A DNA stretch of 50,807 bases from Planctomycetota bacterium (GTDB lineage Bacteria > Planctomycetota > UBA1135 > GCA-002686595): NCBI GenBank assembly GCA_021730845.1, contig JAKFYL010000008.1, positions 1 to 50,807 of the forward strand, written 5' to 3'. The notes below the pieces were generated by a model, which was not told where the DNA came from, ran no database searches, and worked only from the letters and a program-made list of their open reading frames with translations. Of this stretch, positions 6,692 to 50,807 are shown piece by piece. A program made the translations under genes and the position numbers. Every line of letters begins with the position of its first letter. Position 1 is the stretch's first letter.

Positions 6692-6748
6692 GATCAAGGG
6701 ACGTGAAAGGCGCTAGCGGCCAAAGGGGAGAGAGGGAATGGGGGCCCC

Positions 6749-29017: not shown

Positions 29018-29037
29018 GGAGGTCCCATCCTAACCCA

Positions 29038-31686: not shown

Positions 31687-31834
31687 GGTTGCGGCTCGCT
31701 GCTGGGATGGGCTGCGCGATCGATGGCGTTCAGGCCAGAGTCTCTAGTACCTCGGGGCCCGCCATAGCCTAGCGCGATCGAGACAAGGGCTCTGTCGCGC
31801 GCCGCCTGAAGTGCGCCTTTGGACTGAGAATTGG

Positions 31835-34354
31835 TCATGGCCTGGGCAGCGCGATCTTGCACTGCGCCGGGGCGTCCTTGGAAACCACGACGCTTTGGGG
31901 CTCGCTCAAGCTGACCCACGAGTTCTCGATGTACTGTCCAGCTTGGAGCAGGTAGGTACCGGGAAATACCAGCGGAAAGGAAACGAGGTCGGCATCGATT
32001 TTCCGGCTTTGGGCGGCCTTCTGCGCTGAATCCGTGGGACTCAAGTTCAAGTACACCTTCTTGTCCGAAGTAAGCCAGAGGGATCTGCCGGCGACCTCGA
32101 CTGCCAGTTCTTGCCAATGGGGAATGACCAAAGTCTGCTCGAGATCCGCAAAGCCGCTTGGAATCGAAAGTTGGAACGGGCGTCCCCCGGCGTTCACCTC
32201 GGCTTCCAAGGCGATCGTTGGCGCTGGAGCCATGACTAGAACGCCAGGCGATTCCAGCTTGAGGAATCCGATCGTGCCGGCACCCCCTGGGCGAGCCACG
32301 TGGCCGTGAACCTTTGGCGCCAAACGACCGGATTCGTCGACCACGCGCACGCGCAGCGACCTGCCTTTATCCAAGACGAATACGACCGCTTGTTCTCCTG
32401 ATACAGGCTGATGGTCGACGAACAACGGCGCAAATCCCTTCGCGGAAATTCGCAACTGAACCGCTGCGCCCAGCCCCTCGGCGCGAAACTCACCTCGTTC
32501 ATCGCAGGGCACCCCGCGCAGAGACTTGGCACCGAGAGCTCCAATGTCTACATCGGCCGATGGGATCGGCGCGCCATCAGTTCCCATCACGGTGCCCAGG
32601 AGTACGTTCTTGTAGTCACTGAGGTCCAGTTCCACCACGCGATGTTCTTTGGGGCGCAGGGGCTGGATTGGAATCTCCTGGAGCACGACTCCGCCCCCTC
32701 CAACGGCAAACAGGCGCAACGCAACACCGTGGCGCATGGGAGAAATGGAGATACGGCCGTCGCCAGAACGAGAGAATGTCGCCCAACCGGGGCCAATATC
32801 CGCGTTGGTGCTGGAACTATCGCTGGCTCCGGTTGACGAGGCGGTCCAGCTCGGACGCCCTTTGGACAGGAACAGCGGCTCATCAGCCTCCAAGCGCACT
32901 CCAAACCAACTGGGATCTGGTCCTTGGAGCTTGAACTCGAGCACGGCGCTGGCAGTGAGCACCACTACGGCCATGTGGTCACCTTGTGGGACGGGAAACA
33001 CCCGGTCCTCAAAGCCGCTTGCGGAGGCCAACAACTCCACCGCGTCAAGAGGCACCCCGAACTCGACTTCGCCGTTCCCGTCGACGCGATGATCTTTCGG
33101 TCCTACGAGAAAATTGTGAGCATCATCAGCCGGCGGAGCCGCACGCAGGGCCGAAACCTTGGCCTCGGAAATCGGTTTGGACGTGGAATCTTGGACCCGA
33201 ACGCGAACCAAGCGCACGGGCGAGCACTCCAATACCCCCACATCGAAGGAGCGGATTCCCGGTGGAAACTCAAAGGGCAGTTCATTGTCCAAGCCACCGG
33301 CTTGATCTTGAACTTGAACGGTCAAGCGTTTCGGCGCTTCAACCTGGCAAGTCACCTCGAATTTCCCATCTTCGCCAGTGCCGGTCGAGGCACACATGTC
33401 CGGAGTGTCACGGCCTCCCCACACTTGGACGACAACCGCGACGCCTGCAGCAGGCTCCCGGGTGGGCACGCGCACTACGGTGCCAGTGATAGTGGGCGAT
33501 GTTTCCAGATCAAGCTTCAAGTCCGCCCGAGGAACTTCCGTTTCCAGCTCGCGGTATAGCATGGCACCCTGGCGCGACTCCGGGGCTGCAATGTCCGAAC
33601 TCGGGTCGATGCGCCGGTGGTAATGTCCACTCCAATCGATCTTCACCTGGGATCCAGGGGCCAGACCAACAAACTGAAACTGCCCGCTGTCGCCAGTGAA
33701 TACCCTCGGCGACTGGAAGGACGCACCAAAACACTTCCACAGCTCGCGAACCGCGGCCGGGACGTCCGGCTGCTGCCAACTTCCTTCGGGTGGATGGACA
33801 AGCAGCAGAATGGGATCTTTGGGCGCGGCCCCATCCACGGTTACAAAGCCCTCGACCGTCGCCCCTAGATCGAACGCAACCGTCTGACGCGCTAAGCCCA
33901 GGTCGACGCTCCAGTGCTGCGGCAGGCGCGAAGGATGCCATGCAAACAGCGTCGCATTGCCTGTGGAACTCGAGACACTTGCCAGGCCATCCGCTCCCGT
34001 GACTCCAGATGCGACCAGCGCATCTGCAAGCATCAAAGCCCACTTCGCGCCATCCATCGGAACATCAGCCGCGCTGCGGATCTCGATCGTCGCGCTGCCG
34101 AAGGTCGCGACCGGCGTGGAAGCCTGCTCCACACGAGTGGCTGATGATCCTTCAGGCAGGGGCAATGCGTCATCGGAAGGCACCGCCGCTCGCGGTGGTC
34201 GATCCTTCGCTGGCGCGGATTCGAGCGCGGCTTCAGCGGGACCAGCACTGGCGCCGGCCGAATCGGGCTGCGTCCCCGAATCAATCGCAAACCAAACCGC
34301 GACACCCGCCGCCGCTAGCGTCAAAAACCCAATCGCGAGATGTTGGATTCGCAT
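31835..34354 (-). CDS. Large membrane-anchored carboxypeptidase-regulatory-like protein (paralogue B)
   Basis: An 839-residue relative of the 882-aa protein downstream: a signal anchor (LAIGFLTLAAAGVAVWFAI), an acidic/Ala-rich linker, then successive Ig-like/carboxypeptidase-regulatory-like segments such as ITGTVVRVPTREPAAGVAVV, VRVRVQDSTSKPISEAKV and LLGTVMGTDGAPIPSADVDI. No enzyme residues are recognised. ATG at 34354. It is the first gene of the B-A-kinase series; 148 nt separate it from the next gene, enough for an additional promoter. It faces away from the methyltransferase gene, with a 151-bp divergent gap. Likely role: cell-surface structure or signal reception for the kinase, by inference only. 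Confidence 0.72.
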   Translation of the reverse strand: MRIQHLAIGFLTLAAAGVAVWFAIDSGTQPDSAGASAGPAEAALESAPAKDRPPRAAVPSDDALPLPEGSSATRVEQASTPVATFGSATIEIRSAADVPMDGAKWALMLADALVASGVTGADGLASVSSSTGNATLFAWHPSRLPQHWSVDLGLARQTVAFDLGATVEGFVTVDGAAPKDPILLLVHPPEGSWQQPDVPAAVRELWKCFGASFQSPRVFTGDSGQFQFVGLAPGSQVKIDWSGHYHRRIDPSSDIAAPESRQGAMLYRELETEVPRADLKLDLETSPTITGTVVRVPTREPAAGVAVVVQVWGGRDTPDMCASTGTGEDGKFEVTCQVEAPKRLTVQVQDQAGGLDNELPFEFPPGIRSFDVGVLECSPVRLVRVRVQDSTSKPISEAKVSALRAAPPADDAHNFLVGPKDHRVDGNGEVEFGVPLDAVELLASASGFEDRVFPVPQGDHMAVVVLTASAVLEFKLQGPDPSWFGVRLEADEPLFLSKGRPSWTASSTGASDSSSTNADIGPGWATFSRSGDGRISISPMRHGVALRLFAVGGGGVVLQEIPIQPLRPKEHRVVELDLSDYKNVLLGTVMGTDGAPIPSADVDIGALGAKSLRGVPCDERGEFRAEGLGAAVQLRISAKGFAPLFVDHQPVSGEQAVVFVLDKGRSLRVRVVDESGRLAPKVHGHVARPGGAGTIGFLKLESPGVLVMAPAPTIALEAEVNAGGRPFQLSIPSGFADLEQTLVIPHWQELAVEVAGRSLWLTSDKKVYLNLSPTDSAQKAAQSRKIDADLVSFPLVFPGTYLLQAGQYIENSWVSLSEPQSVVVSKDAPAQCKIALPRP

Positions 34355-34505: not shown

Positions 34506-35447
34506 ATGAAGGCCCAAGTGACAGGCACCATTCACCTTGCAGACAACCTGGAGGTGCTGCGCAAGCTGCCCTCTGAGTCGGTGGATCTGATTTACATCGA
34601 TCCGCCGTTCAACACTGGAAGGGTCCAGAAGCGCACGCAGATCAAGACCGTGCGCTCGAAGAACGGGGATCGGATTGGTTTCGGCGGCCACCGGTACGAG
34701 AGCATCGTGATCGGGACCAAGCGCTTTGGCGACGCGTTCGATGACTACCTCCGATTTCTGGAGCCCAGACTCGTCGAAGCCCAGCGCGTGCTCGCACCCC
34801 ATGGGAGCCTGTACTTTCATGTGGATTACCGCGAGGTGCACTACTGCAAGATTCTCCTCGATTGCATTTTCGGCAGAGATTCGTTTCTCAATGAGATCAT
34901 CTGGGCCTACGACTACGGCGGCCGGCCGAAAACGAAGTGGCCGCCCAAGCACGACAACATCTTGCTGTATGCCAAGGATCCGTCGAACTACGTCTTCAAT
35001 TACGAAGACATCGAGCGCATTCCCTACATGACGCCGGGACTGGTGAGCCCGGCAAAGGCGGCGCGCGGCAAGCTGCCGACCGATACCTGGTGGCACACGA
35101 TCGTCCCCACCAACAGTTTCGAAAAGACCGGCTATCCGACCCAAAAGCCGCTGGGCATCCTGCGGCGCATCGTCCAAGCATCCTCGCGGCCTGGTTCGCT
35201 GGTCCTGGACTTCTTCGCCGGCAGCGGCACGACTGGAATTGCGGCGCTCGAGTCCGGGAGGAAGTTCCTTCTCGTCGACAACAGCGTGACGGCCCTCCAA
35301 GTGATGGCGCGTCGACTTAAAGACATACGAGGCATTGAGTGGGTTGACTTCGATCCAGCGCCTCGGCAGCATCGTCCGCGGAAACCTGCCCAACCCACCG
35401 CCAAGTCAGCCGGGAACACAAAGCGCAAACCCTCCTTGCCAAAGTAG
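34506..35447 (+). CDS. Site-specific DNA methyltransferase, beta class (orphan)
   Basis: A 313-residue SAM-dependent amino-methyltransferase acting on DNA. The catalytic motif IV DPPF (IYIDPPFNTG) is near the N-terminus and the SAM-binding motif I DFFAGSGTTG near the C-terminus, the beta-class order, giving N6-adenine or N4-cytosine methylation. ASSRPGSLVLDFF and TGYPTQKPL (motif X region) agree. The Lys/Pro-rich tail (RKPAQPTAKSAGNTKRKPS) may help DNA binding. No restriction endonuclease or specificity subunit is adjacent, so it is an orphan methylase, perhaps regulatory or a relic of a restriction system. It lies between unrelated operons in a less GC-rich patch, which is compatible with horizontal transfer. 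Confidence 0.9.
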   Translation: MKAQVTGTIHLADNLEVLRKLPSESVDLIYIDPPFNTGRVQKRTQIKTVRSKNGDRIGFGGHRYESIVIGTKRFGDAFDDYLRFLEPRLVEAQRVLAPHGSLYFHVDYREVHYCKILLDCIFGRDSFLNEIIWAYDYGGRPKTKWPPKHDNILLYAKDPSNYVFNYEDIERIPYMTPGLVSPAKAARGKLPTDTWWHTIVPTNSFEKTGYPTQKPLGILRRIVQASSRPGSLVLDFFAGSGTTGIAALESGRKFLLVDNSVTALQVMARRLKDIRGIEWVDFDPAPRQHRPRKPAQPTAKSAGNTKRKPSLPK

Positions 35448-35733: not shown

Positions 35734-37026
35734 TCAGATCTCGCGCAAATAACCCCAGGAGTGCAGGCGGTCGGAGTCTTCTTGCCAGCGGTCGCCGATG
35801 TCGGTGCGGTAGTACATGTTGGGGATCATGATGTTCTTGATGCGTCCGTAAGCTTGCTGCTGAGCGGCGCGCATGGTCGCGCCTAGGCCCACGACGACCA
35901 GGATCACGCCCGAGGTGCCGGCCACGACCCATTGGCCTTCGACGAGCTTCACGTCTTCGATGTGCACTTCTTCCGGAGTGCGTTTCTTGAACAAGATCGC
36001 GGTGCCGCGCGAGAGCGAATCGAACGTGCCGGGATCGTCGAACGGGTACGGCGGCACGATCACGCGCACGCCGATTTGGAAGCCGCTGCGCACGCGCAGC
36101 TTGGGGTCCTGGCCGTCCGCCAAGTCGAACAGGAACTCCCCGATGGGCGTGAGCATGCCCTCCTGTTGAATCATGATCGTCGGGTAGCCGAAGCGCGCGG
36201 TGAACTCGAGCGGATAGATGCCGTTGGCGTTGACGATGCAGTTGAGGTCGATGTAGCCCGAGTACTTTTCGCGCGCGAGGATCTCCTCCATCTTCTTCAG
36301 GCTCTGGTTGAACAACCGGTTGGGCTCGCTCCAGAACATGGAGGTGCCCATCTCCCCCGTCGAGGGTCCGATGTTGCCCGGAAACAGGCGCTTGTGCTCG
36401 AAGTTGACGTTGACCGGCGTGACGAACTGCTTGCCGTTGAAGAATGCCCCCACCGCGACCTCCACGCCGGTGACGCGCTTTTGCAATTGGAACACCGGAA
36501 TCTGGTCCGCCAGGGTGTTGCGGTAGGCCTCCAGCAAGTCGACCACGTCCTGGCCGTCTTCCTCCTCGCCCACGAACAGGCGCCGCTTGACGTTCTGGGC
36601 CGCGCCCGAGGGCTTGATCACGTAGCGATCGGGGTTCTTCTTCACATAGGCAATGGCCGAGTCGAAGCTGGTGAACTCCTTGTAAGGCAGGATGGCCACG
36701 CCCGCGGCCTTGAGCTGTTCCTGCACGAAGGAGCGGTCGTCCTCCAGCCGGTCCGTGAAGGTGCTGCCCCCCACCACGCGCTTGCCCCTGGCGCGCAGCT
36801 CCTGGGCCAGCGTGCCCTGACCCAAGGTGTCGTCGAACACGATCACCTCGGCCCAGTCGACGTGCGCCTTCCAGTCCAGGGCCTTGTCGACGAAGCCGTC
36901 GGCGATGTCGCGCTCGTCGACGTCGCCAATGGAGTACAGGACCTGGTGGCCCTCCTTCTTGACCTGCCAGGCGATGTCGCCGATCAGGCCGGAGTCAGAG
37001 ACGAACAAGAAGCGCCGAGATTCCAT
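35734..37026 (-). CDS. Divergent PurD-like ATP-grasp ligase
   Basis: A 430-residue ATP-grasp protein that resembles phosphoribosylamine-glycine ligase (PurD). GNIGPSTGEMGT corresponds to the PurD GPNTGGMG loop, NGIYPLEFTARFGYPTIM to LEFNVRFGDPE, and the C-terminal IPNMYYRTDIGDRW to the GMYYRTDIG end. The N-terminal GxGGREHA loop of PurD is absent; the protein starts FLFVSDSGLIGDIAW instead, and the glycine-binding Asn and Asp positions are changed. It may be the GAR synthetase of this lineage or a paralogue with another carboxylate-amine substrate. No other purine gene is near. ATG at 37026, divergent from moxR across ~290 bp. Confidence 0.65.
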   Translation of the reverse strand: MESRRFLFVSDSGLIGDIAWQVKKEGHQVLYSIGDVDERDIADGFVDKALDWKAHVDWAEVIVFDDTLGQGTLAQELRARGKRVVGGSTFTDRLEDDRSFVQEQLKAAGVAILPYKEFTSFDSAIAYVKKNPDRYVIKPSGAAQNVKRRLFVGEEEDGQDVVDLLEAYRNTLADQIPVFQLQKRVTGVEVAVGAFFNGKQFVTPVNVNFEHKRLFPGNIGPSTGEMGTSMFWSEPNRLFNQSLKKMEEILAREKYSGYIDLNCIVNANGIYPLEFTARFGYPTIMIQQEGMLTPIGEFLFDLADGQDPKLRVRSGFQIGVRVIVPPYPFDDPGTFDSLSRGTAILFKKRTPEEVHIEDVKLVEGQWVVAGTSGVILVVVGLGATMRAAQQQAYGRIKNIMIPNMYYRTDIGDRWQEDSDRLHSWGYLREI

Positions 37027-37318: not shown

Positions 37319-38341
<1,023 letters not shown>

Positions 38342-38369: not shown

Positions 38370-39308
38370 GTGGACTCGCAAACGACCAAGTCGAGTGAGA
38401 AACCCAAGGGCTCCAATCCCTTGGATCCGGCCGTGCTCGATCGCTTGGACGGTCTGGCGCTGGTGGCGCGCACGGTCGTCGAAGGACTGCTCTCGGGACA
38501 CCATCGATCGCCGCTGCGCGGCAGTTCGGCCGAGTTCGCCCAGCACCGCCAATACGTGGTTGGGGACGAGCTGCGGCGCCTGGACTGGAAGGTCTTCGCC
38601 AAGACCGATCGTTTGGTGGTCAAGGAATACTTCGAAGAGACCACCTTGGACTGCCATGTGCTGGTGGATGCCAGTGAGTCCATGGGCTTTGGCTCCGTGG
38701 GTTGGAGCAAGCTCGATTACGCGCGCTGGTGCTCGGCCGCGCTCGCGCACCTGGTCGTGGCGCAACGCGACACGGTTGGATTGGTGGTGTTCGACGAAAA
38801 GGAGCGCGCCAAGGTGCCGCCTGGAAACGGCGCCGAGCAACTCGCCGCTGTGCTCAGCCAACTCGAGCTCGCACGCCCCGAGGGTGCGACCGGGGTGGGC
38901 GGAGTCTTGGGCTGGATCGCCGGTCGACTCAAGCGCCGCGGCTTGGTCGTGATCTTCTCGGATTTCTTCGACGAGCTGGACCAGATCGGCACGGGCCTGG
39001 AGCAATTGCGCCACGCGGGCCATGAACCGATCCTGATTCAAGTCGTCGATCCGCTCGAGAAGAGCCTCGACATCGATCACTTGGTGCGTTTCGACGGCCT
39101 GGAAGGCACGGGCCAAAAGCGACTGGATCCGCGCGCGATTCGCGCTGCCTACCAAGAAGAATTCGCGCGTCACGCGCGCGAGCTCGAAGCGCGCGCGCGC
39201 GGACTGGGCCTGGACTTCGTGCAGGTCGACACCTCGCGCCCGGTCGACGTGGTACTCACGACCTACCTCACCGGGCGCAACGCCAAGGCGCGATTGGGAG
39301 GCCGCTGA
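38370..39308 (+). CDS. DUF58 (VWA-related) protein
   Basis: A 312-residue protein of the DUF58 family that almost always accompanies MoxR. FAQHRQYVVGDELRRLDWKVFAKTDRLVVKEY is split by the family block GDELRRLDW, and HVLVDASESMGFG holds the DxSxS metal-ion (MIDAS) motif. GLVVIFSDFFDE provides the later conserved Asp. No membrane helix is apparent, so it is likely a cytoplasmic or peripheral partner of MoxR. GTG at 38370 has AAGGGG a few nt upstream. Its TGA overlaps the next ATG by one base. Confidence 0.92.
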   Translation: MDSQTTKSSEKPKGSNPLDPAVLDRLDGLALVARTVVEGLLSGHHRSPLRGSSAEFAQHRQYVVGDELRRLDWKVFAKTDRLVVKEYFEETTLDCHVLVDASESMGFGSVGWSKLDYARWCSAALAHLVVAQRDTVGLVVFDEKERAKVPPGNGAEQLAAVLSQLELARPEGATGVGGVLGWIAGRLKRRGLVVIFSDFFDELDQIGTGLEQLRHAGHEPILIQVVDPLEKSLDIDHLVRFDGLEGTGQKRLDPRAIRAAYQEEFARHARELEARARGLGLDFVQVDTSRPVDVVLTTYLTGRNAKARLGGR

Positions 39309-41611
39309 TGCTTGCCACCTGGCAACCCCCGCTGGCCTTCATCGATGGCTTCCTGCACCCGGGGCTGGCCGTAGGTGCTGCGCTCGCGCTGGTTCCGCTG
39401 GCCATTCACTTGCTCAACCGCCAGCGCCACAAGCCCATGTCTTGGGCGGCCATGCGCTTTGTCGAGGCCGCTTGGAAGAAGACGCGGCGCCGCGCCCGCT
39501 TGGAGGAGTGGCTGCTGCTTTGCTTGCGCATGGCCGCCATCGCGCTGCTGGCCTTTGCCTTGGCACGCCCGTTCTTGGGTGCGCGCTCGCCGCTGTCCAT
39601 GTTGACCGAGCGTCGCCGCGACGTGATCGCGATCCTGGATGTGTCAGCCTCCACGGGGTATCGCGTGCAGACGCGTTCGGTCTTCGAAGCCATCACGGAA
39701 CGCACACGCGAACTGCTTGCCGGCCTGGATGCCAGCCGCGGCGACCGCGCGCGCGTGCTTACGGCCGGGGCCGTGCCGCAGTTGATCGCATGGCGCTCGC
39801 CCGCGGAAGCCTTGGCGGCCGTGGCGGCCCTGGAATCTCCGACCGACGAACGCGGCGACTTGGTGGCGGCTCTGGGTGAGGCCGCGCGGTTGATCGAGGC
39901 CGACGGCGACCAAGCAAACATCGGAGAGCAAGAGCTGTGGCTCTTGTGCGACCTGCAACGCAACGCCTTCCTGGACGATTTCGGCCGCGAGGATGCGCCG
40001 GCCGGGACCGACCTGGCTGCCCAGGTGGCGCGCTTGATCGCACTGGGCACCAAGATCCAGGTGCTGGATATGGGTCGAAAGGAGGATGGCCGCACGAATT
40101 TGGGAGTGACCGCGATCCGCGTGCAGGGCACCAATCTGGCCGCGGGCGCGTCGCAGCCCATCGAAGTCGAAGTGCGCAACGGAGCCACCAGCGGGCGCGC
40201 CCTGGCGCGCGTGGCTTTGGACGTGAACGGCGAGCGCCGACCGGCCCAGACTCTGGAAGTCCCCGCCGGCAGCTCGGCGCGCGCCCAGTTCGAAGTCGTG
40301 TTCCCAGCGAGCGGCGAGCACCTCGTTGAGGCGCGCCTGGAACCCGACCCGCTGGCTTTCGACGACATGCGCGCGGCCGTGGTGAGCGTGCCCGCACCGG
40401 TGCGCGTGTTGATCGTGAACGGCGAAGCGTCGGCGGACGTGGAGCGCGACGAAGTGGCGTTCTTGGTCGCGGCCCTGACACCACCGCGCGGCGACGAAAT
40501 CGGCGGCCAAGGAGCTCCCTTCGACGTGCGCACGGTCGAACCCTTCCAACTCTGGGATGGTTCGCTCGATCTCGCGAATTTCGACGTGCTGTTCTTGGCC
40601 AACGTCGGAGCGCTGTCCGCGGAAGTTACATCTCAGATCGAAACCCAGGTGGCGCACGGCGCAGCCCTGGTGCTCTCGATGGGCAAAGTCACGGAAGCTG
40701 CGCGCCAGGTCTTGAACGCGCGTTTGGTGCAGGGCGATGGTTCCGGGCTCTTGCCCGCTGCCTTGGGAGCGCGCGTATCGGTCGCGGATCGGCGCGCGAA
40801 TTGGTGGCGCGCGCGCTCGTTCGATCACGCCCATCCGGTGCTGGAGTTTTTCGCGGACGAGCGCTGGAAAGCCCTGCTGACCGAAGTGCCGGTTTACGAT
40901 TTTCTGTCCATGCGCGTGGACGACCAGCCGGCGCCTGGCCAAGGCTCCGGCGCGCGAGCGTTGATCCGTTTGGACGACGAAGCACACAGCCCGCTTTTGG
41001 TCGAGCGCACGTTCGATCGCGGCAAGGTGCTCGTATGGTTGACCTCGATCGACGCCGAGTGGGCGCGGGTGGTCGAGTCGCCGAGCACGTTCGTACCCCT
41101 GGTGCACGAACTCGTGCGCTACGCCGGCACGCCTAGCCCGCCGCAGCGCAACGTGGCGGTGGGTTCTCGTCCCATGCTGCGCTTGCCACCGGGTGCCTTC
41201 CCGGGCGCGGCTAGCGCCGTTCTTCCCGACGGCACCAAGCGTCCGCTAGCCGGCGAGGCCACGGGCGACGGAGCGCAGGATGGTTCGCGCGGCTGGATTC
41301 TGCCGCCTCTGGAATGGACCGATCGCGCCGGCGTGGTGCGCGTCGAAACCGCCGGCGCGGGAACTTGGACGGTTGCGGTTCAGGCCGAGGCCGGCGAGGG
41401 CGATCTCGAGCGGATCAGCGCGGCGGAATTGCGCCAGATCCACCCCGCGCTCGCGCCGGCCGGTGAAGTCACTAGCCAAGCTGGCGTGCAGGATCCCGCC
41501 GGCGGCCGCGGCGAACTGTGGCGGATCTTGGCGGGACTGTGCCTAGCGGTGCTGGCCGCGGAAACCCTGTGGGCTGCTTGGATCGGCGCGCGCCGCGGCA
41601 GGAGTGTGTGA
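39308..41611 (+). CDS. BatA-like membrane protein with VWA and GATase1-like domain
   Basis: A 767-residue protein. Two N-terminal membrane segments (AVGAALALVPLAIHLLN and LLLCLRMAAIALLAFALARPFLG) form the BatA N-terminal module, with MSWAAMRFVEAA between them. A VWA domain follows with an intact DxSxS (LDVSASTG). The middle (~350-470) has a Rossmann-like RVLIVNGEA...VLFLANVGAL segment similar to the glutamine-amidotransferase-like domain seen in planctomycetal VWA proteins, without an obvious Cys nucleophile. A C-terminal membrane helix (ILAGLCLAVLAAETLWAAWIG) anchors it again. It should be a membrane partner of the MoxR ATPase. The start overlaps the upstream stop by one nt, and its own stop overlaps the next start by one nt. 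Confidence 0.88.
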   Translation: MLATWQPPLAFIDGFLHPGLAVGAALALVPLAIHLLNRQRHKPMSWAAMRFVEAAWKKTRRRARLEEWLLLCLRMAAIALLAFALARPFLGARSPLSMLTERRRDVIAILDVSASTGYRVQTRSVFEAITERTRELLAGLDASRGDRARVLTAGAVPQLIAWRSPAEALAAVAALESPTDERGDLVAALGEAARLIEADGDQANIGEQELWLLCDLQRNAFLDDFGREDAPAGTDLAAQVARLIALGTKIQVLDMGRKEDGRTNLGVTAIRVQGTNLAAGASQPIEVEVRNGATSGRALARVALDVNGERRPAQTLEVPAGSSARAQFEVVFPASGEHLVEARLEPDPLAFDDMRAAVVSVPAPVRVLIVNGEASADVERDEVAFLVAALTPPRGDEIGGQGAPFDVRTVEPFQLWDGSLDLANFDVLFLANVGALSAEVTSQIETQVAHGAALVLSMGKVTEAARQVLNARLVQGDGSGLLPAALGARVSVADRRANWWRARSFDHAHPVLEFFADERWKALLTEVPVYDFLSMRVDDQPAPGQGSGARALIRLDDEAHSPLLVERTFDRGKVLVWLTSIDAEWARVVESPSTFVPLVHELVRYAGTPSPPQRNVAVGSRPMLRLPPGAFPGAASAVLPDGTKRPLAGEATGDGAQDGSRGWILPPLEWTDRAGVVRVETAGAGTWTVAVQAEAGEGDLERISAAELRQIHPALAPAGEVTSQAGVQDPAGGRGELWRILAGLCLAVLAAETLWAAWIGARRGRSV

Positions 41612-44007
41612 TGCAGGCTCCTGATACCTCGCTCGGACGCTCTTTCGACTTGGCGCAGGCGCCGCCCGCGTGGGTGTTCGTGCTCATCATCGCCCCGGTC
41701 TTGATCGGGCTGTGCTACCTGGGCTATCGCAAGGAATCTCTCAGCACGCCCACGCGCTGGTTGCTAGCAGGGCTGCGCTGCGCGGCGCTGCTCGTGTTGT
41801 GCCTGGTTTGCTTGCGCCCGGTCCTTGTCGAGCGCCAAGACCATGTGCAAGCGCCCGAGGTCCTGGTCTTGATCGACGATTCCGCCAGCATGCGCCGCAA
41901 AGACGCCTACGCGGACGACCCGGCACGCTCCGCGCCGCTGGCGGAATTGGCGCGCCTTGCCGGCGCTCCGCGCTTGGAGGATGCGCAGCGCATCGACTTG
42001 GTGCGAGCGGCGCTCCAGAACAGTTGGTTGCCGCTGCTGGAAGAGCGCGGCTACCTAGCCAACGTGCTGGCCTTCGCCGGCGACCTGAGCCCGGTCGGCA
42101 GCGAGTGGAAGCTTTCAGCCAGCGGCGCGACCACCCAAATCGGAACGGCGCTGGAACGCGCGCTGCAGCGCAGCTTGGGCAAGCACGTGACCGACATCGT
42201 GCTCATCTCCGACGGCCGGCAAACGTCCGGTCCCTTGGCGAGTGCCGCGGCCCGCGCCGCCACCAGCGCCGGGATTCCCGTGCACACGGTGGTCGTCGGC
42301 GACACGCGCGAGGAAAAGAACGCCTGGCTCGAATTGGTGGAAGCTCCCGAGAGTGCCCTCGAAGGCGACGAAATCGCGCTCACCATCCGCGCCATGGGCC
42401 GGGGGCTCAAGCCGCAGGAGACCGCCAGCATCGTGCTCGAGGAACTGCAGGGATCCGAAGACCTTGGTCCGGACTCGGGTGAACCCAGCGCCCAGACACT
42501 CGATGTGCAGGAGCGTACGCTGGTGGATGGCGGCGAGCGCATCACCATGGTCGCCCGCGCCGGCGCCGGCGACGCGCGCACGCGCGAGCGCCGTTTCCGC
42601 ATCAAAATCCCGCCGCTCGGCGGCGAGACGCTGCAAGACGACAACCAAATCGAAGTCGCCGTGCGCGTGGTGCCCGAGAAAGTGCGCGTGCTGTATGTCG
42701 AAGGCTATCCGCGCTGGGAGTATCGCTTCCTCAAGGAGGTGCTCAAGCGCGCAGACGAAAACATCCGCGTGCAGTGCTTCTTGCTGTCCGCCACCAGCGA
42801 CTTTCCACAGGAATCCACGCGCGAGGTTCCGGCACTGGCCCGTGTGCCGACTTCGCGCGAAGAATTGCTTCGGGATTACGACGTGATCATCCTGGGCGAC
42901 GTCAGTCCCTGGCAGATCTCGCCCGATCCGGCCCAGGCCCAAGAGTTTCTGGAATCCTTGGTGCAGTTCGTGGAGAGCGGCGGCGGTCTGGCCCTCTTGG
43001 CCGGCGAGTACGACAACCCACGCGCGTATCTTTCGACGCCGCTTGAGCCCGTGTTTCCCGTGGTCTTGGATGCCGGCGAGCTGGCCACAGGCGCCGTCGA
43101 TACCACGCGCGAGTACCGCCCGCTATTGGACGATCCGTCCAATCCGCACGAGATCGTGCGACTGCTGAGCGATCCGGCCGAGAACCGCCGGCTGTGGGAA
43201 GTAGACGGCGGGCTGTTTCCCATGTATTGGTTCCAAGGAATCGCGCGCGCCAAGCCCGCCAGCCAGGTGCTGCTCCGCCATCCCAGCGAAACCAGCAAAA
43301 GCGGCCCCTATCCCCTCTTGGTCGCCGGCTACTACCCCGCGGGGCGCACCCTGTTCCTGGCGTTCGACGAGACCTGGCGCTGGCGCTTCCACTACGGCGA
43401 TTTGTTCCACGAACGCTTTTGGCGCAACGCCGTTCGGTGGTTGGCCCTGGGTCGCATCAAGAGCGGCGACCGGCGCTTCAAGCTCGAAGTTGGGCGCTCG
43501 GAGATTTCGATCGGCGAAAGCCAGGTCGTCGAAGTGCGCCTGCTCGATGTGGACTTTCGGCCCAGCACGGAGTCCAGCGCTCAGGTGCAGGTGAGCGGCG
43601 CGGACAACAAGCAGCGCAGCATCGATTTGGCCCAGTCCCCAGGGCGACCGGGGGTCTACCGCGGCACCTTCACTCCCAGCTCCACAGGCTCGGTGCGCTT
43701 GTGGATCGAGAATGCAGCCGAGCGCGTCGCCACGGCGGAATTCGCCGTAGTCCTGCCCTCGCTCGAGCAGGCCGAGCCGGCGCCCGACCGGGCCTTGATG
43801 GCCGAGGTGGCCCTGCTGGGTTCCGGTCGCGCCGTCGAACTGGCCCGCCTGGCGGACCTAAACCAAGAGTTCCCTGCCGGCCAGGAACGCCGGGAACCGA
43901 TTTTCTCCCGCTTGGACGACATATGGGACACTTGGTACACGCTCTTGTTGGCGTTGCTGCTCTTGTCTGCCGAGTGGATCGTGCGCAAGCGGCTGGAATT
44001 GGTCTAA
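41611..44007 (+). CDS. Membrane VWA protein with glutamine-amidotransferase-like domain
   Basis: A 798-residue protein with two N-terminal helices (AWVFVLIIAPVLIGLCYLGY and LRCAALLVLCLVCLRPVLV), then a VWA domain with an intact MIDAS (LIDDSASM) and LISDGRQTSG. A GATase1-like region (VRVLYVEGYPRWEYRF...VIILGDVSPWQ...GGGLALLAGEYDNP) follows, and a terminal helix (TWYTLLLALLLLSAEWIV) ends it. AGGAG lies six nt before the ATG at 41611. Architecture matches the preceding BatA-like protein, suggesting a pair that assembles in the membrane. The amidotransferase-like domain seems to lack its catalytic Cys-His and may serve binding. Function unknown. Confidence 0.88.
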   Translation: MQAPDTSLGRSFDLAQAPPAWVFVLIIAPVLIGLCYLGYRKESLSTPTRWLLAGLRCAALLVLCLVCLRPVLVERQDHVQAPEVLVLIDDSASMRRKDAYADDPARSAPLAELARLAGAPRLEDAQRIDLVRAALQNSWLPLLEERGYLANVLAFAGDLSPVGSEWKLSASGATTQIGTALERALQRSLGKHVTDIVLISDGRQTSGPLASAAARAATSAGIPVHTVVVGDTREEKNAWLELVEAPESALEGDEIALTIRAMGRGLKPQETASIVLEELQGSEDLGPDSGEPSAQTLDVQERTLVDGGERITMVARAGAGDARTRERRFRIKIPPLGGETLQDDNQIEVAVRVVPEKVRVLYVEGYPRWEYRFLKEVLKRADENIRVQCFLLSATSDFPQESTREVPALARVPTSREELLRDYDVIILGDVSPWQISPDPAQAQEFLESLVQFVESGGGLALLAGEYDNPRAYLSTPLEPVFPVVLDAGELATGAVDTTREYRPLLDDPSNPHEIVRLLSDPAENRRLWEVDGGLFPMYWFQGIARAKPASQVLLRHPSETSKSGPYPLLVAGYYPAGRTLFLAFDETWRWRFHYGDLFHERFWRNAVRWLALGRIKSGDRRFKLEVGRSEISIGESQVVEVRLLDVDFRPSTESSAQVQVSGADNKQRSIDLAQSPGRPGVYRGTFTPSSTGSVRLWIENAAERVATAEFAVVLPSLEQAEPAPDRALMAEVALLGSGRAVELARLADLNQEFPAGQERREPIFSRLDDIWDTWYTLLLALLLLSAEWIVRKRLELV

Positions 44008-44014: not shown

Positions 44015-47000
44015 ATGGACTCCAGCGCCAAGCGTGCGAGCCGAAAACCCGTGAATGTAGCGGCGTCTTGCTTGCTGACCTTGGCCTTGTCCGGGACCGG
44101 CGGCTTGGCCCGCGCCCAGGCGGGCTCCCTGCCGCAGGGGTTCTCGATTCCCAAGACACGCGACGCGTCCGAGTTGTACCAGCGCGCGCGCACGCACCTG
44201 GCAGCCGAGCGCTTCGACGAAGCCATCGTGCTGCTGCAAGACTTGCTCACCCGCTACGGCGCGCAGGTACTCGACCCACTCGAATTCGAAGCTCAAGGCG
44301 CAGCAGCGGCGCCGGACGAGGAAACGGCGGACAGCGGCAATGCGGCCGGTGCCCGTCAACGTTTGCGTCCGCTCGGGCGCAGGGCGATGGCCGCGTCGCC
44401 CCAATTCCAGCGCTCGACCAAGATCGGCGTGGCCGCGGCCATCGCGCATGAGTTCGAACGCTTGCCGGCCAAGGCGCAGATCCTGTATCGCGAGCGCTTT
44501 GGGCGCGCGGCCCAGGAGGCGTTCGAACAAGCACTTGCCAATCTCGATCGTCGGCTCCTGGTCGAGGTCGCCGTGAACTACCCGTTGACCCAAGCCGCGC
44601 TCTCCGCGCGCATCGCGCTATGCGACCTGGAGTGGGAAAGCGGGCAGCTGCAGGCAGCTCGATCGGCACTGGGTGATTTCACGCCCGAGCAACTGGCAGC
44701 CGCAGGTGCCAGTGAATCCCACGTGCAGGCCTTCGAGCAACGGCGGCAGGCGCTGAAGCCGTTGCTGGAGCCGCAGCTTTCCCCATCGCTCGCCGCAAGC
44801 GAGTCGGGCGTAGTCCCGAACGCTGGGCTAGGCGGCGACGCAAAGGCGCTCGCCCAGGGCGAGCATACCTGGAGCCTGCGCATCGACGACGGCGGCGACT
44901 CCAGCCCGTTCAACGTCGCGCGCGGGGGCGATACGCACAACTTGCTGCCGGTCGTGCACAAGGACACGGTGTACGTATGCAATTCGATGAACGTTCGCGC
45001 CATCGATTTGGGCACGGGCCGAGAATTGTGGAAATCCGCCGAGGCCCCCGGCTGGGACCTCGTCGATCGCGGCCAGGTAACGGCGCCCAATCAGCGCACG
45101 GGCATCCAACGTCCTTTGAGACGCCTGGAGTTCTTCGAAGCCATCGACCGCCGCAATGCCTTGATCGCGCCGGCCACCGACGGGCGCGTGGTGGTGGCTC
45201 CCTTGCAGGTGCCGCTCACCCAAGTCGGCAGCCAGAACTTCCAAAGCCTGCGCATCACGTACGTCATTCCGGATCGGCGCTTGTTCGCTTTCGACGCGCG
45301 CACGGGCGCGCCGCTGTGGAATCACCTGCCGCCGCTGCTAGCCGACTCCGAGAACTTGCCCTTGGAACGCGTGGCGCGCGTCGCCGCACCGCCGGTGCTG
45401 GCGGGCTCGCGGTTGCTCGTACCGCTGTATCGCATTCAGGGGCGTGTGGACTATCACGTCGCGTGTTTTGACCTAGCCAGCGGAGAACGCCTGTGGTCGA
45501 CGCCAGTGGTGTCGGGGCAACTGCCGCTGAACATGTTCAATCAGCACTCGCGCGAGTTCTGCTCGGCGCCGTTGGTCGTGGAAGGCCAGCGCGTGCTCGC
45601 GCAAACCCAGCTCGGGGTGCTCGCAGCGCTGGACCTCTTCAGCGGAGACATCCTGTGGGAATTGCCCATCGATCCCATCCCGATTCCGCGCATGGGTCAC
45701 GACTGGGTGGCGCCCGAAAGGGAGCAACACTGGCGCAACGCGACTCCGATCGTGCAAGGCTCGGTGGCTGTATTTGCGCCGCTTGACTGCTACGACATGA
45801 TCGGGGTGGAGCTGGAAACCGGCAAACCGCTGTGGATCGCTCCGCGCGCCATGTTCTTGCCCGAGGGCAAGCGATTCCTGGAAACTCCGCTGCGCTTGTT
45901 TGGTGCCAGCGCGGAGCGCTTGTACGTCGCCGGTCCTGCGATAGCCGCGGCGCGCGCTGCGAACGGACTGCGAGAAGTGCCGCGCGCGGACCCGCTGCGC
46001 GGAATGAGCGAAGAACTGGCCCCGGAGGGCTTCTTCGACCCCAGCTACTTGGCTTGGCCGAGCTTGCTCGCCCGCCACGTGGTGGTTCCCGGCCCCGAAG
46101 CGCTGCTCGTGCTCGATGCGCAGGACCTCAAACGCTCCGTAGCCGGCCTGGGCGGAACTTGGCCCTCCGGATCGGGTGCGGGCAACATGCTCGTGGCGCC
46201 GGACTGGAGTTTGGTGCTGTCCAACAAGTACCTCTGGGCAAACGTCGACTGGCAGGCGCGCATGGAGCGGCTCCAGGCGCAGGTTCGCGAGCACCCTTTG
46301 GACCCGTCGCGGCGCTTGGCTCTGGCTGGGATGTACTTGCAGCGCGCCGACCTGAAACTGCGGCTTGGCATCCTGCGCGAAGCCGTCGACTTGGCGCAGC
46401 AAGCCCAGCAAACGCTGGTGTCGCCCGCGGGCTGGGAACGTGAGCCGGCGCCAGATGCGCTTGTGGCCGGCGAAGTGCGCGCCCTGAGCTATCGCGCCGC
46501 CATGCTGCTCGCGCGCGCCCACTGCGAACTTGCGGACACGGCGCTCGGACTGGAGCACGCCGAGCGTGCCCTGCACCTGGCGCACGATGCACTCGAAAAG
46601 GCCAGCGCCGTGGTGCTCGCGTTGGAAATCGGACGGCTGCGCGGCGGCTGCAGGGAGCTCACTGCGCTGATCGCCTTGCTGCGCGAACTCCCCACCGACC
46701 TCTCGCTGGCAGCCATTGCGCGGCAGTCCACCGGCGAGGGAACCAGGCCTTTGGACAGCTCGCTGGAACTCACGACGCTGGCCGAGTGGACGCGCGACTT
46801 GGCTTTCGATTGCGCCAAGTCGAACCAAGATGTGGCGCTGGAGTTCGAGTTGCTCGATCAGGCCTTGGAATCCAGCCCGGACCAGGCGCTAGGGGCCGCG
46901 CTGGGCGTGTACTTGGGTGCAAGCTCGTCGCCGGACCCCGCCGACCTGCCAGCGCGCCCCGGGCGGCGTTTGGCGGCCGATCACTTGGCGGAGCTATTGG

Positions 47001-48832
47001 CGCGCGACGAGCGCGCGCGCGATTTGTTCGTGCCTTTCCAAGCGCGTGCCCAAGCGGCCCTCGAGCAGGCACTGGCCGCCGGTGACCCCGCGTTGCTGGA
47101 GCGCCTGTCTTCGCGCTATCCGCACACGGATGCGGACCTACGCGCACAATCCCTGCGCCTGGAACGCGCTTTGGAAAGCGGCTCGCTCGCGGAAGTCGCC
47201 CAGCTTGTGCAGCGCGTGCTTCCAACCGACTTGCGTTGGAAGCAAGTATCCGCACTGGCAGGCTCCAGCCATTGGCTAGCCCTGGACGCCCTGGAACGCA
47301 GCGCGCGCCGCTCGTCCAACACGGCCCTAGCCGATCGCTTGCGCGCGCGCATGTCCCGCCGGCACTCCGAAACCAAGGAGTTTCCCAGCGACGGCAGCCT
47401 GCCCGGCCCGTGGACGCTCACAGGGCCCAACGTGGTGCTCGGACCGAGCCTCGAAACCAGTGCCATGCTCGACAACACCGAACGGCTCTTGTGGGTGGTC
47501 GACGAGGATCCCGATCCCAGCGCGCCGATCGAAGACTCCGCTGCGTCCGAGATCCATGACCCAGGGCACCGAAAATCTTTGGCCACGTCGATTTGGATCA
47601 GCAGCACGAACCAGGGCAACTCGGCGGTCTTGACCGCCACCGGCCCGGACGGTCCCAAAGCAGGTGAACCGCCGAGATGGCGCGAAAACTTGGGTTCGTT
47701 CGCCGAGGTTTGGGGAGCCTTTCGCCACGCCGACAGCTTGATCCTTTTTGGACCCACCCAGGTAGCTGCCGTCAACCTGTTTGACGGAAGGCGGCTGTGG
47801 GCGCGCGCCGCCGGCCGCTACGGGCACTATTCGAAAGCGCACTATCAGTCCGGCGTCTTGATCCTGCGTACTCAAAGCGAAAGCGGTCAGGACGAGATGC
47901 TTGCATTGGACGCCGTAGCCGGCATCGAATTGTGGCGCCGCAACGTGCATGCACGCACTGATTCGCATCTCTTGGTAGGGCCGGAGCATGCGCTGCTGCT
48001 GGCCAACGATGGCAGCCGCTGCACGATCGAAGCCATCGATCTGTTTTGCGGACGGCTGAGCAGCACGATCGAGCTGGAGCGCAGCTTGTCCGAAGCCGAT
48101 CTGGCCGGCGCTTGGATCGCCGAAACCACTGCGTATTTGCCGCGCTTTCCGCGCGCCAGCACCGCGAAGGACCGCGAGCAGGCCGTGCTGACGGCCCTGG
48201 ACCTCGACAGCGGAGAGTCGAGCTTCGAAGTTCCTGGCGACCCGCGCCGGGAACTCGATTTGGTTTTCGTTTGCCCGCAGGGCTTGTTCCTGTTGTTCCA
48301 GCCCGCCGGTGGTCCCGATACACCGCGCGATGGAGCGTCGCCCCATGGCCTATTCATGGAAGTCAACTCCAGAAGCGGTCGCACTCGCAATTTGAATCAA
48401 ATCAGCGTGGCACCACTCGACGTGGCGTTCGGCCCTTCGATGCGCAGCGTCTTTTTCGCGCGCGAGCCTTTCCTGTTCTTGCGCAGCGAGCCCGCGGCCG
48501 GAGAAGACGTCATGTTGCGCATGATTCACCTGCCCTTTGGCGAGCGCTGGCGCACGCGCCTGGAAACACCGTCTGAGGCCGACCCCTCGCCCATGATCGA
48601 TGCATGGGTCGCCAGCGCACAGACCGTTGCGCTGTGCCGGAGGCCCCTGCCGGGCGAAAGCCAAGGCGACGCGCTCGAACTCGCGCTGCTCGATCGCGGC
48701 ACGGGGCGGCTGCTCTACCGCCGGCAACTGGTCGAATTCCAAAGTCCCAAAGATGCACTCAGGCTGCAGGCCATGGGACGATTGCTGGTGGTTACGGATG
48801 GCCGCGAGTCCCTAGTTCTACGTTCCCCTTGA
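44015..48832 (+). CDS. Giant exported TPR / double PQQ-propeller protein
   Basis: A 1605-residue exported protein. The signal peptide is residues 1-35 (SCLLTLALSGTGG, then LARAQA). Residues ~48-250 contain TPR-like helices (ELYQRARTHLAAERFDEAIVLL). Residues ~280-740 look like a first PQQ/BamB-type propeller: IDLGTGRELWKSAEAPG, FDARTGAPLWNHLPP and ALDLFSGDILWELP are classic blade repeats. A long helical section (~750-1090) follows with TPR-like periodicity, then a second propeller from ~1110 to the end (VNLFDGRRLWARAAG, LDAVAGIELWRRNV). No catalytic motif is seen. It begins seven nt after the VWA gene, so it is probably the extracytoplasmic component of the MoxR/VWA cluster. The double propeller around a helical core is unusual. 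Confidence 0.8.
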   Translation: MDSSAKRASRKPVNVAASCLLTLALSGTGGLARAQAGSLPQGFSIPKTRDASELYQRARTHLAAERFDEAIVLLQDLLTRYGAQVLDPLEFEAQGAAAAPDEETADSGNAAGARQRLRPLGRRAMAASPQFQRSTKIGVAAAIAHEFERLPAKAQILYRERFGRAAQEAFEQALANLDRRLLVEVAVNYPLTQAALSARIALCDLEWESGQLQAARSALGDFTPEQLAAAGASESHVQAFEQRRQALKPLLEPQLSPSLAASESGVVPNAGLGGDAKALAQGEHTWSLRIDDGGDSSPFNVARGGDTHNLLPVVHKDTVYVCNSMNVRAIDLGTGRELWKSAEAPGWDLVDRGQVTAPNQRTGIQRPLRRLEFFEAIDRRNALIAPATDGRVVVAPLQVPLTQVGSQNFQSLRITYVIPDRRLFAFDARTGAPLWNHLPPLLADSENLPLERVARVAAPPVLAGSRLLVPLYRIQGRVDYHVACFDLASGERLWSTPVVSGQLPLNMFNQHSREFCSAPLVVEGQRVLAQTQLGVLAALDLFSGDILWELPIDPIPIPRMGHDWVAPEREQHWRNATPIVQGSVAVFAPLDCYDMIGVELETGKPLWIAPRAMFLPEGKRFLETPLRLFGASAERLYVAGPAIAAARAANGLREVPRADPLRGMSEELAPEGFFDPSYLAWPSLLARHVVVPGPEALLVLDAQDLKRSVAGLGGTWPSGSGAGNMLVAPDWSLVLSNKYLWANVDWQARMERLQAQVREHPLDPSRRLALAGMYLQRADLKLRLGILREAVDLAQQAQQTLVSPAGWEREPAPDALVAGEVRALSYRAAMLLARAHCELADTALGLEHAERALHLAHDALEKASAVVLALEIGRLRGGCRELTALIALLRELPTDLSLAAIARQSTGEGTRPLDSSLELTTLAEWTRDLAFDCAKSNQDVALEFELLDQALESSPDQALGAALGVYLGASSSPDPADLPARPGRRLAADHLAELLARDERARDLFVPFQARAQAALEQALAAGDPALLERLSSRYPHTDADLRAQSLRLERALESGSLAEVAQLVQRVLPTDLRWKQVSALAGSSHWLALDALERSARRSSNTALADRLRARMSRRHSETKEFPSDGSLPGPWTLTGPNVVLGPSLETSAMLDNTERLLWVVDEDPDPSAPIEDSAASEIHDPGHRKSLATSIWISSTNQGNSAVLTATGPDGPKAGEPPRWRENLGSFAEVWGAFRHADSLILFGPTQVAAVNLFDGRRLWARAAGRYGHYSKAHYQSGVLILRTQSESGQDEMLALDAVAGIELWRRNVHARTDSHLLVGPEHALLLANDGSRCTIEAIDLFCGRLSSTIELERSLSEADLAGAWIAETTAYLPRFPRASTAKDREQAVLTALDLDSGESSFEVPGDPRRELDLVFVCPQGLFLLFQPAGGPDTPRDGASPHGLFMEVNSRSGRTRNLNQISVAPLDVAFGPSMRSVFFAREPFLFLRSEPAAGEDVMLRMIHLPFGERWRTRLETPSEADPSPMIDAWVASAQTVALCRRPLPGESQGDALELALLDRGTGRLLYRRQLVEFQSPKDALRLQAMGRLLVVTDGRESLVLRSP

Positions 48833-48846: not shown

Positions 48847-50142
48847 ATGCCCTGGAACATCTGGACGCTAGCCGCAGGCAGCAGGATCTTGGAGTGCCGG
48901 CGCTTGGCGCTTTGCGGCATGCTTGCCGCCGGGGTTTCGTCGCTAGCCCTGGGATTGGCGCGCGCGGCCCCCAAGCCCCCCCAGGGCACGGGGCCGGCAG
49001 CGCCGGCGTCCGGGTCGCTTCCGCCCGGGCGCGCTGCGCAGTCGGAAACACTTGCGGGGAACTCGAAAGCGACCAAGACGCGTGCCAGCGGCGACGATCT
49101 GCTGGTCGAGGTCACACCCGAGCACGCACTCGCCGTCGAACACGGTTTGGCTTGGCTCGCGAAGAACCAGTCCGAGGACGGCAGTTGGACGGCCAAAGTC
49201 GGCTACAAGCTCAACAACGACTACAACCACTTGCATGCCAACCGCGGGCACGTGGGTGTCACGGCGCTCGCCGGCATGGCCTTCTTGGCCGGCGGCCACT
49301 TGCCGGGACGCGGAGAATACGGCGCGGTCGTCGAGCGCGCGCTCGGCTATGTGCTCTCGGCAGTGCAACAAGATGGCTACATCACCGCCAACGACACGCG
49401 CATGTACAGCCATGCCTTCTCCGCGTTGTTCTTGGCCGAGATCTACGGCATGACCCATCGGGCGGACATCAAGCAGAGTCTGCAGCTCGCCATGGACTTC
49501 ATCGTCCAGTCGCAGAACGAGGAAGGCGGTTGGCGCTACGTGCCTTACGCGCGCGAATCGGACATGTCGATCGTCGTGTGCCAGGTGTTGGCATTGCGCG
49601 CGGCGCGCAACATCGGCATCCGAGTGCCCAAGACCACCATCGATCGCGCCGCACGCTACGTCGTCGATTCCGCGGTCAGCGAGGACTCGCTGGTGCGCCA
49701 TTATCCGGGTGCGTTCCGCTTCGAGTCGGAGATCGGCTCGTTCCACTACCAAAAGCAGGACGGATCCCGTTCCTCGTTCGCGGTCACGGCCGCGGGAGTT
49801 ACTGCGCTGTATGGTGCAGGCGTGTACTCCGATGAAGCCATCGAAGACGGCATCCGCTATCTGCGTGGACGCTTGTCCGAGTTCCAGCGCATGTACGGCC
49901 GTCGCAGCGGAGGCCACTACTTCTTTTGGTACGGTCATTACTACGGCGTGCAGGCCATGTACACCGCTGGTGGCGAAGGCTGGGTGGACTACTTCGGCAC
50001 CGTGCGCGACGAGATCTTGAGCATGCAAAACGAAGACGGATCGTTCCCCAATGCCGTCGGACCGGGCCCGGCCTTCGGCACCGCCATGGGCGTCTTGATC
50101 CTGGAAATCCCCTATCGTTTCCTGCCCATCTTCCAGCGCTGA
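48847..50142 (+). CDS. Exported squalene-cyclase/prenyltransferase-repeat protein
   Basis: A 431-residue exported protein. A signal peptide (RRLALCGMLAAGVSSLALGLARA) precedes a Pro/Ser/Ala linker and then an (alpha/alpha) barrel with QW-type repeats: KNQSEDGSWTA, SQNEEGGWRYVP and MQNEDGSFPN. SGGHYFFWYGHYYGVQAMYTAGGE is a conserved block I know from planctomycetal members. The DxDD acid of true squalene cyclases and a zinc site of prenyltransferases are not seen, so it may be a binding or glycan-related barrel rather than a terpene enzyme. It starts 14 nt after the propeller gene. A TTG at 48829 would overlap that stop, but the ATG at 48847 is more likely. Confidence 0.82.
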   Translation: MPWNIWTLAAGSRILECRRLALCGMLAAGVSSLALGLARAAPKPPQGTGPAAPASGSLPPGRAAQSETLAGNSKATKTRASGDDLLVEVTPEHALAVEHGLAWLAKNQSEDGSWTAKVGYKLNNDYNHLHANRGHVGVTALAGMAFLAGGHLPGRGEYGAVVERALGYVLSAVQQDGYITANDTRMYSHAFSALFLAEIYGMTHRADIKQSLQLAMDFIVQSQNEEGGWRYVPYARESDMSIVVCQVLALRAARNIGIRVPKTTIDRAARYVVDSAVSEDSLVRHYPGAFRFESEIGSFHYQKQDGSRSSFAVTAAGVTALYGAGVYSDEAIEDGIRYLRGRLSEFQRMYGRRSGGHYFFWYGHYYGVQAMYTAGGEGWVDYFGTVRDEILSMQNEDGSFPNAVGPGPAFGTAMGVLILEIPYRFLPIFQR

Positions 50143-50163: not shown

Positions 50164-50807
50164 ATGGCAAGCGCATCCAAACCCAAACCGGGGGCCGCTA
50201 CCCAAAGCGCCAAGCGCGGCGTCGACTGGAAGCTGCCCCACACGCCCAGGCTCGCGGCGTTGCTGGAGCGCGTGCGCTCGCGATTGGTGCGTCTGTGCTT
50301 GATGCAGGGCCTGGGCGTGCTCTTGGCCGGGGCCAGTGCCTGGCTGCTGTGGAGCTACGTAGCCGATCGCAATCTGCGCGTGCCTTGGTTCGTGCGCGCC
50401 GTTCACCTCGTGGTGTTTGCCCTCGTTTGCGGCTGGATTCTGTGGCGCCATGTGCTGCGCCCCTTGTGGAACATCCCGGGTCGGCGCGGGCTGTCGATCT
50501 TGCTCGAGCGCACGGATCCTGCCAGCCACCAACTCTTGGTCAGCGCAGTCGAATTCCAGCGCCCGGGTGCCGAGGGACTGGGCGATCCAGGCTTGGTGCG
50601 GCGGGTGCTCGAGCGCGCGGAATTGGCTGCTGTACAAGCCTCGCCGGCAGGCGTGTTCGATGCACGGCTGCCGCGCCAGCGGCTGGTGCTCGGGCTGTGC
50701 TTGGCACTCCTCTCCCTTGGTCTTTGGGCCGCCTATCCGGGCCAAGCGCGTATTTTTTGGGCGCGCTTTTTCCTGCAATCGGCGCGCTGGCCCAAGGACA
50801 CGCACCT
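50164..50807 (+). CDS. Multi-pass membrane protein, DUF4175-like, cut by window end
   Basis: The frame opens with ATG at 50164 and remains open to the last base (214 codons), so the gene continues beyond the window. The N-terminal ~40 residues are basic, followed by two membrane helices (LMQGLGVLLAGASAWLLWSY; FVRAVHLVVFALVCGWILW), a cytoplasmic helix-rich loop with LLERTDPASHQLLVSAVEF, and a third helix (LVLGLCLALLSLGLWAAYPG). That order recalls DUF4175/TIGR02302-type proteins found next to BatA/VWA clusters. It begins 21 nt after the squalene-cyclase-repeat gene. Because no stop codon is present, a closed-frame search would miss it. Confidence 0.7.
   Translation, partial: MASASKPKPGAATQSAKRGVDWKLPHTPRLAALLERVRSRLVRLCLMQGLGVLLAGASAWLLWSYVADRNLRVPWFVRAVHLVVFALVCGWILWRHVLRPLWNIPGRRGLSILLERTDPASHQLLVSAVEFQRPGAEGLGDPGLVRRVLERAELAAVQASPAGVFDARLPRQRLVLGLCLALLSLGLWAAYPGQARIFWARFFLQSARWPKDTH

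What the first reader, a model, noticed from the sequence alone, without database searches (positions are those of the whole stretch)
44015..48832. 1605-residue exported protein with two PQQ-like propellers around a helical core
Blade repeats of the D-x-x-[TS]-G-x-x-L/E-W type appear in two separate blocks (about residues 280-740 and 1110-1605) with TPR-like helices before and between them. BamB-like propellers are normally one per protein and under 500 residues. The double arrangement suggests a scaffold bridging two partners.
Basis: partly seen in the sequence, partly recalled or inferred. Interest (0 to 1): 0.6.

Follow-up and report, generated by a model that had tools for sequence, protein, structure and literature searches.

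The report
Exported double TPR–propeller protein, Bat-like operon
A 1605-residue secreted protein really is laid out as helices–propeller–helices–propeller; it sits in a conserved MoxR/Bat-type operon, and many relatives get by with only its first half, so the second propeller looks like an optional extra rather than an essential bridge.

Summary
The ORF and its layout are real: signal peptide, TPR-like helices, PQQ/BamB-type propeller (about 280-745), second TPR-like block (755-1115), second, more diverged PQQ/BamB-type propeller (about 1205-1605). The blade motif occurs 7 times against 0.02 in shuffles. The protein is not a one-off: 56 of 60 relatives have a match, nearly always between a membrane VWA gene and a squalene-cyclase-like gene, downstream of MoxR, DUF58 and BatA. 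Across the phylum the same slot holds either this roughly 1500-aa double form or a roughly 730-aa single form (helices plus first propeller only). C-terminal modules share one ancient origin; single forms are not one clade (p-AU 1e-4), which points to repeated loss of the C-terminal module. Conserved polar residues lie in propeller 1 and persist in single forms. Best reading: the exported TPR-propeller docking subunit of a Bat-like MoxR-VWA envelope system, with module 1 doing the conserved work. It is not BamB, and nothing indicates a PQQ enzyme. "Scaffold bridging two partners" is possible but not needed.

The parts
44015..44119 (+). Sec-type signal peptide (residues 1-35; no lipobox, A-R-A|Q cleavage site)
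   Evidence: sequence read directly; family alignment keeps a hydrophobic stretch followed by A.AQ
44120..44860 (+). N-terminal TPR-like helical domain (residues 36-282)
   Evidence: profile A4 matches TPR proteins
44861..46249 (+). propeller 1, PQQ/BamB type (residues about 283-745), the conserved part; family-specific residues R421, Q502, F508, E514, R569, W573, P589, D591
   Evidence: PF13360/PF01011; PDB profile hits; blade scan; residues conserved in single and double forms
46277..47389 (+). second TPR-like helical domain (residues 755-1125); its C-terminal part resembles the N-terminal helical domain
   Evidence: hhalign 97.9%, E 4.7e-13
47039..47194 (+). helical motif A.A...L..A....D...L......YP.S.A...A (residues about 1009-1060), also found in the first helical domain at about 160-215
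47627..48829 (+). propeller 2, diverged PQQ/BamB type (residues about 1205-1605)
   Evidence: PDB profile hits to BamB E 4.8e-18; PF13360 in 44 of 51 relatives; 7 blade anchors
37319..38341 (+). MoxR AAA+ ATPase, first gene of the operon
   Evidence: PF07726 E 4.3e-62
38370..39308 (+). DUF58 protein with VWA fold (DxSxS)
   Evidence: PF01882 E 2.1e-46
39308..41611 (+). [quoted passage not shown]
   Evidence: PF07584 E 3e-18, TIGR02226 E 3.2e-22; hydropathy
41608..44007 (+). second membrane VWA protein with GATase1-like region (start codon uncertain)
   Evidence: PF00092 E 1.4e-4 and PF07090 E 9e-4, both below the curated cut-offs; syntenic homologues
48847..50142 (+). exported squalene-cyclase-like (alpha/alpha toroid) protein
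   Evidence: PF13243 E 1.2e-7; 49-71% identical syntenic homologues
50164..50805 (+). start of a multi-TM protein (DUF4175-like by recall only; Pfam gave no match), cut by the window end

Best explanation
The protein is the exported (periplasmic) docking subunit of a Bat-like MoxR-VWA envelope system, probably of Planctomycetota. It is made of two modules, each TPR-like helices followed by a PQQ/BamB-type propeller. Shown: the architecture at profile level, the conserved operon, single-module forms in the same slot, and one common origin of the C-terminal modules sampled. Inferred: MoxR (cytosolic ATPase) acts with DUF58 and the membrane VWA proteins; the TPR-propeller protein is secreted and binds the periplasmic VWA domains and/or the squalene-cyclase-like protein; the conserved polar residues of propeller 1 make the essential contact; module 2 adds a faster-changing, lineage-dependent second surface and has been lost several times. 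It fills the place that exported TPR proteins fill in classical Bat operons.
For: Operon order: VWA found in 50 and the squalene-cyclase-like gene in 50 of 51 relatives' loci, the gaps being contig ends. Domains of neighbours. BatA topology of two plus one TM helices and DxSxS matches BB0173, whose VWA domain faces the periplasm (PMC5700661). TPR proteins are regular Bat partners and proposed complex builders (PMC5700661, PMC3557215). Single-module forms in the same slot, with MoxR/DUF58/BatA/VWA/cyclase-like genes kept. C halves form one side of a branch, support 100, and score better with C-derived than N-derived profiles. Singles as one clade rejected, p-AU 1.2e-4. Residues R421, Q502, F508, E514, R569, W573, P589, D591 conserved in singles and doubles.
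Against: No structure: AlphaFold without alignment failed. No interaction data. Bat function itself is unknown; deleting all bat genes in Leptospira biflexa gave no phenotype (PMC3557215). Some lineages carry the double form without the operon nearby (L105-L107) or with altered gene order (L109). Propeller 2 is no closer to propeller 1 than ordinary PQQ proteins of the same genome are, so whole-module duplication is not proven.
Confidence: 0.55

Rival explanations
1. A BamB-type factor of outer-membrane protein assembly: the propellers bind BamA POTRA domains or nascent barrels and the TPR part stands in for BamD.
For: Both propellers match BamB chains best in the PDB; weak matches to BamB and BamD models; the genome has two BamA-like genes.
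Against: Scores 45.8 bits against a BamB cut-off of 285; no lipoprotein signal; 1605 aa instead of about 390; in a MoxR/VWA operon, not with bam genes.
Confidence: 0.12
2. A quinoprotein or other enzyme/ligand sensor: propeller 1 binds a small ligand at its conserved polar residues.
For: Propeller 1 carries conserved polar residues beyond the blade signature, in singles and doubles; fold relatives include PQQ dehydrogenases; MoxR was named from a methanol dehydrogenase operon (recalled).
Against: 22 bits against a cut-off of 480 for PQQ dehydrogenases; no Cys-Cys pair; only short stretches align.
Confidence: 0.15
3. A component of the MoxR-vWA-beta-propeller conflict (defence-like) systems of Kaur et al. 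2020.
For: That class combines MoxR, vWA and a TPR plus propeller protein and occurs in planctomycetes (PMC7159879); the MoxR also matches bpMoxR at 45.9 bits.
Against: No propeller on either VWA protein; P-loop is GVPGLAKT, not GxxxTAKS; stable, phylum-wide, syntenic gene rather than a variable accessory; no PADLOC match.
Confidence: 0.05
4. The double form arose by fusion of the conserved TPR-propeller gene to another TPR-propeller gene, not by internal duplication; the two propellers then serve two unrelated partners.
For: The propeller-1 profile scores ordinary PQQ proteins (13-51 bits) as well as or better than the C halves (5-25 bits).
Against: The helical blocks resemble each other at profile level (E 4.7e-13) far better than the one unrelated TPR protein tried (a single sequence, so a weak control), and the module order is the same. 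This rival concerns origin; it is compatible with the best explanation.
Confidence: 0.4

Closest known systems
Bat (Bacteroides aerotolerance) / MoxR-DUF58-BatA-VWA-TPR operons of Bacteroides, Leptospira, Borrelia
   Same: MoxR ATPase, DUF58, BatA-type membrane VWA with MIDAS, an exported TPR-bearing protein
   Different: the TPR protein carries one or two PQQ/BamB-type propellers; a squalene-cyclase-like gene and a multi-TM protein follow; no BatD or SH3 found
BamB (YfgL), PF13360 / TIGR03300
   Same: propeller fold family and blade signature
   Different: two propellers plus TPR domains, no lipobox, 1605 aa, far below the family cut-off, different operon
MoxR-vWA subsystem 4, beta-propeller ternary systems (Kaur et al. 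2020, PMC7159879)
   Same: MoxR, vWA and a TPR plus propeller protein together
   Different: no propeller on the VWA protein, ordinary MoxR P-loop, no variable N-terminal effector region, conserved rather than accessory
Large 'BamB' paralogues of Tuwongella immobilis (28 paralogues, 43-193 kDa; PMC8567305)
   Same: planctomycete proteins named BamB, some of this size
   Different: known from annotation and proteomics; domain layout and operon not described in the passages read

Membership tests
BamB | whole-protein score above the TIGR03300 cut-off (285 bits) | tested here: not met
   45.8 bits
BamB | lipoprotein signal (lipobox Cys) | tested here: not met
   signal peptide ends A-R-A|Q, no lipobox; judged by eye
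BamB | one 8-bladed propeller of about 370-400 aa | tested here: not met
   two propeller blocks and two helical blocks in 1605 aa
BamB | binds BamA | not testable with these tools
   no interaction data
PQQ-dependent dehydrogenase | score above TIGR03075 cut-off (480 bits) | tested here: not met
   22 bits
PQQ-dependent dehydrogenase | vicinal Cys-Cys disulfide ring in the active site | tested here: not met
   no CC in the protein
PQQ-dependent dehydrogenase | calcium and quinone ligands | tested here: inconclusive
   only one or two blades align to ADH chains
Bat / MoxR-VWA operon | MoxR-DUF58-BatA in order | tested here: met
   synteny in relatives
Bat / MoxR-VWA operon | second VWA protein and exported TPR protein | tested here: met
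   the VWA hit is below Pfam's curated cut-off but has DxSxS
Bat / MoxR-VWA operon | BatD and/or SH3 (BatE) components | tested here: inconclusive
   no such Pfam match among the genes scanned; the operon runs off the window end
Bat / MoxR-VWA operon | forms a periplasmic complex | not testable with these tools
   proposed for Bat in PMC3557215, unproven there too
MoxR-vWA-beta-propeller ternary system | vWA protein with C-terminal propeller | tested here: not met
   none on either VWA protein
MoxR-vWA-beta-propeller ternary system | MoxR P-loop GxxxTAKS (often) | tested here: not met
   GVPGLAKT in the window's MoxR (sequence)
TPR domain | TPR repeat signature | tested here: met
   at profile level; single-sequence Pfam matches only in a minority of members and weak in the window protein

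The most novel reading that the evidence does not exclude
A phylum-wide planctomycete envelope machine, unlike any studied Bat system, in which a secreted TPR-propeller protein with a conserved binding site on propeller 1 couples MoxR/VWA proteins to a squalene-cyclase-like toroid protein, with a second propeller module gained once and lost repeatedly as an adaptable recognition arm.
Probability: 0.3. Interest if true: 0.6.

Novelty: new variant of a known kind. Interest (0 to 1): 0.4.

Why it matters
MoxR-VWA (Bat) operons are widespread and their job is unresolved. Here nature offers two versions of one subunit in one operon slot, a single- and a double-module form, which makes the role of each half testable by truncation or exchange in cultivated planctomycetes. 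It also shows that 'BamB' labels on large planctomycete proteins can be misleading.

Tried and rejected
PDB search with the single sequence: nothing. The genome-contig scan found only one distant PQQ protein. Whole-module internal duplication was my first reading; kept as likely for the helical part but downgraded for the propellers after the control with ordinary PQQ proteins. In that call a shuffled sequence also reached the single-sequence score of helical block 1 against block 2 (93 against 87), so only the profile comparison counts. L090 looked like a single form inside a double clade, but that genome also has a 1517-aa match and L090 lacks the operon, so it was left out as a paralogue. 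Defence system: no PADLOC match. Literature searches found no description of this operon.

Full report
Observation. The frame 44015-48832 codes for 1605 aa with a Sec-type signal peptide. Pfam finds PQQ_2 (BamB-type) repeats mainly in residues 273-501 and more weakly in the C-terminal part. The strict blade motif occurs seven times; 2000 shuffles gave a mean of 0.02 and a maximum of 1. A blade profile taken from propeller 1 of the family finds seven anchors in the C-terminal block, all above the best score in the two helical blocks, and a profile made from those finds the strong anchors of propeller 1 again. With the first and last strands this fits 7-8 blades each, which I infer and did not show.

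Profiles. I aligned 50-52 relatives per block. Propeller 1 matches BamB and PQQ dehydrogenase chains in the PDB (best E 2.2e-11); propeller 2 matches BamB (4.8e-18); both helical blocks match TPR proteins. The single sequence alone matches nothing in the PDB.

Conservation. Of 61 genomes searched (the window's own included) 57 have a match; most lie in frames of about 1350-1650 aa and are about 27-41% identical where they match. The genome of the window has one copy. Neighbouring genes are kept: a VWA homologue was found in 50 and the cyclase-like homologue in 50 of 51 relatives' loci, the exceptions being contig ends; DUF58, BatA and the multi-TM gene are found in most loci whose contig reaches far enough. 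The operon is MoxR, DUF58, BatA, VWA, this protein, squalene-cyclase-like protein, multi-TM protein. The last I called DUF4175 from memory; Pfam gave no match for the piece in the window.

Single and double forms. A phylum-level search with the propeller-1 profile found matches in 182 of 246 genomes. Of 145 best matches read from that list, 100 lie in frames of at least 1250 aa and 34 in frames of 600-900 aa (frames in GC-rich DNA overrun the true start). Forty loci read in full (20 chosen for short frames, 20 for long ones) show that the shorter proteins are helices plus propeller 1 only; 18 of those 20 have the cyclase-like gene next to them and, in many, VWA, BatA, DUF58 and MoxR as well. 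So two versions of one subunit occupy one slot.

Origin. All C halves fall on one side of a branch with full support, and each scores better with C-derived than with N-derived profiles, so the C module was probably acquired once, early. The single forms do not form one clade (p-AU 1.2e-4), because the double form L108 sits among singles. Together this favours repeated loss of the C module. The trees are quick ones with long branches, so this is a moderate, not a firm, conclusion. Whether the C module arose by internal duplication or by fusion is open: the helical blocks resemble each other (E 4.7e-13; unrelated single-sequence TPR control E 0.034 and 0.0024), but propeller 2 is no nearer to propeller 1 than ordinary PQQ proteins are.

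Function. Residues R421, Q502, F508, E514, R569, W573, P589 and D591 of propeller 1 are kept in members of the order, distant doubles and singles; propeller 2 keeps little but glycines. This points to a conserved binding site on module 1. In Bat operons MoxR, DUF58, BatA-type VWA and TPR proteins occur together; a BatA-type protein of Borrelia has its VWA domain in the periplasm (PMC5700661), and a Bat complex in the periplasm has been proposed, though deletion in Leptospira showed no phenotype (PMC3557215). I therefore take the protein to be the exported docking subunit of a Bat-like envelope system. It fails the tests for BamB and PQQ dehydrogenase and for the propeller-type conflict systems of Kaur et al..

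Novelty. No paper found describes this operon or the single/double subunit; the library is partial. Large BamB-named proteins in planctomycetes are known from annotation (PMC8567305).

Noticed in passing
L109 (G114), 210-10162: Gene order is changed: the 1792-aa double form lies just upstream of MoxR-DUF58-BatA on the same strand instead of after the VWA gene.
   Followed up: partly
L105, L106, L107 (family f30): Double form present, but none of the operon neighbours within about 4-5 kb on either side.
   Followed up: partly
L012 / L055 (genome G019, contig C1): the genome search reports one in-frame TGA inside the homologue's match; the main frame is about 1543 aa.
   Followed up: no
34506-35447 (+): A stand-alone N6/N4 DNA methylase (PF01555); no restriction gene was noticed beside it.
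   Followed up: no
26204-34354 (-): Two adjacent long proteins with CarboxypepD_reg domains (882 and 839 aa), followed by a Ser/Thr kinase with C-terminal TPRs.
   Followed up: no
35734-37026 (-): GARS-type ATP-grasp protein divergent from the MoxR operon.
   Followed up: no
own genome, contigs C398 and C95: Two BamA-like genes, both below the TIGR03303 cut-off.
   Followed up: no
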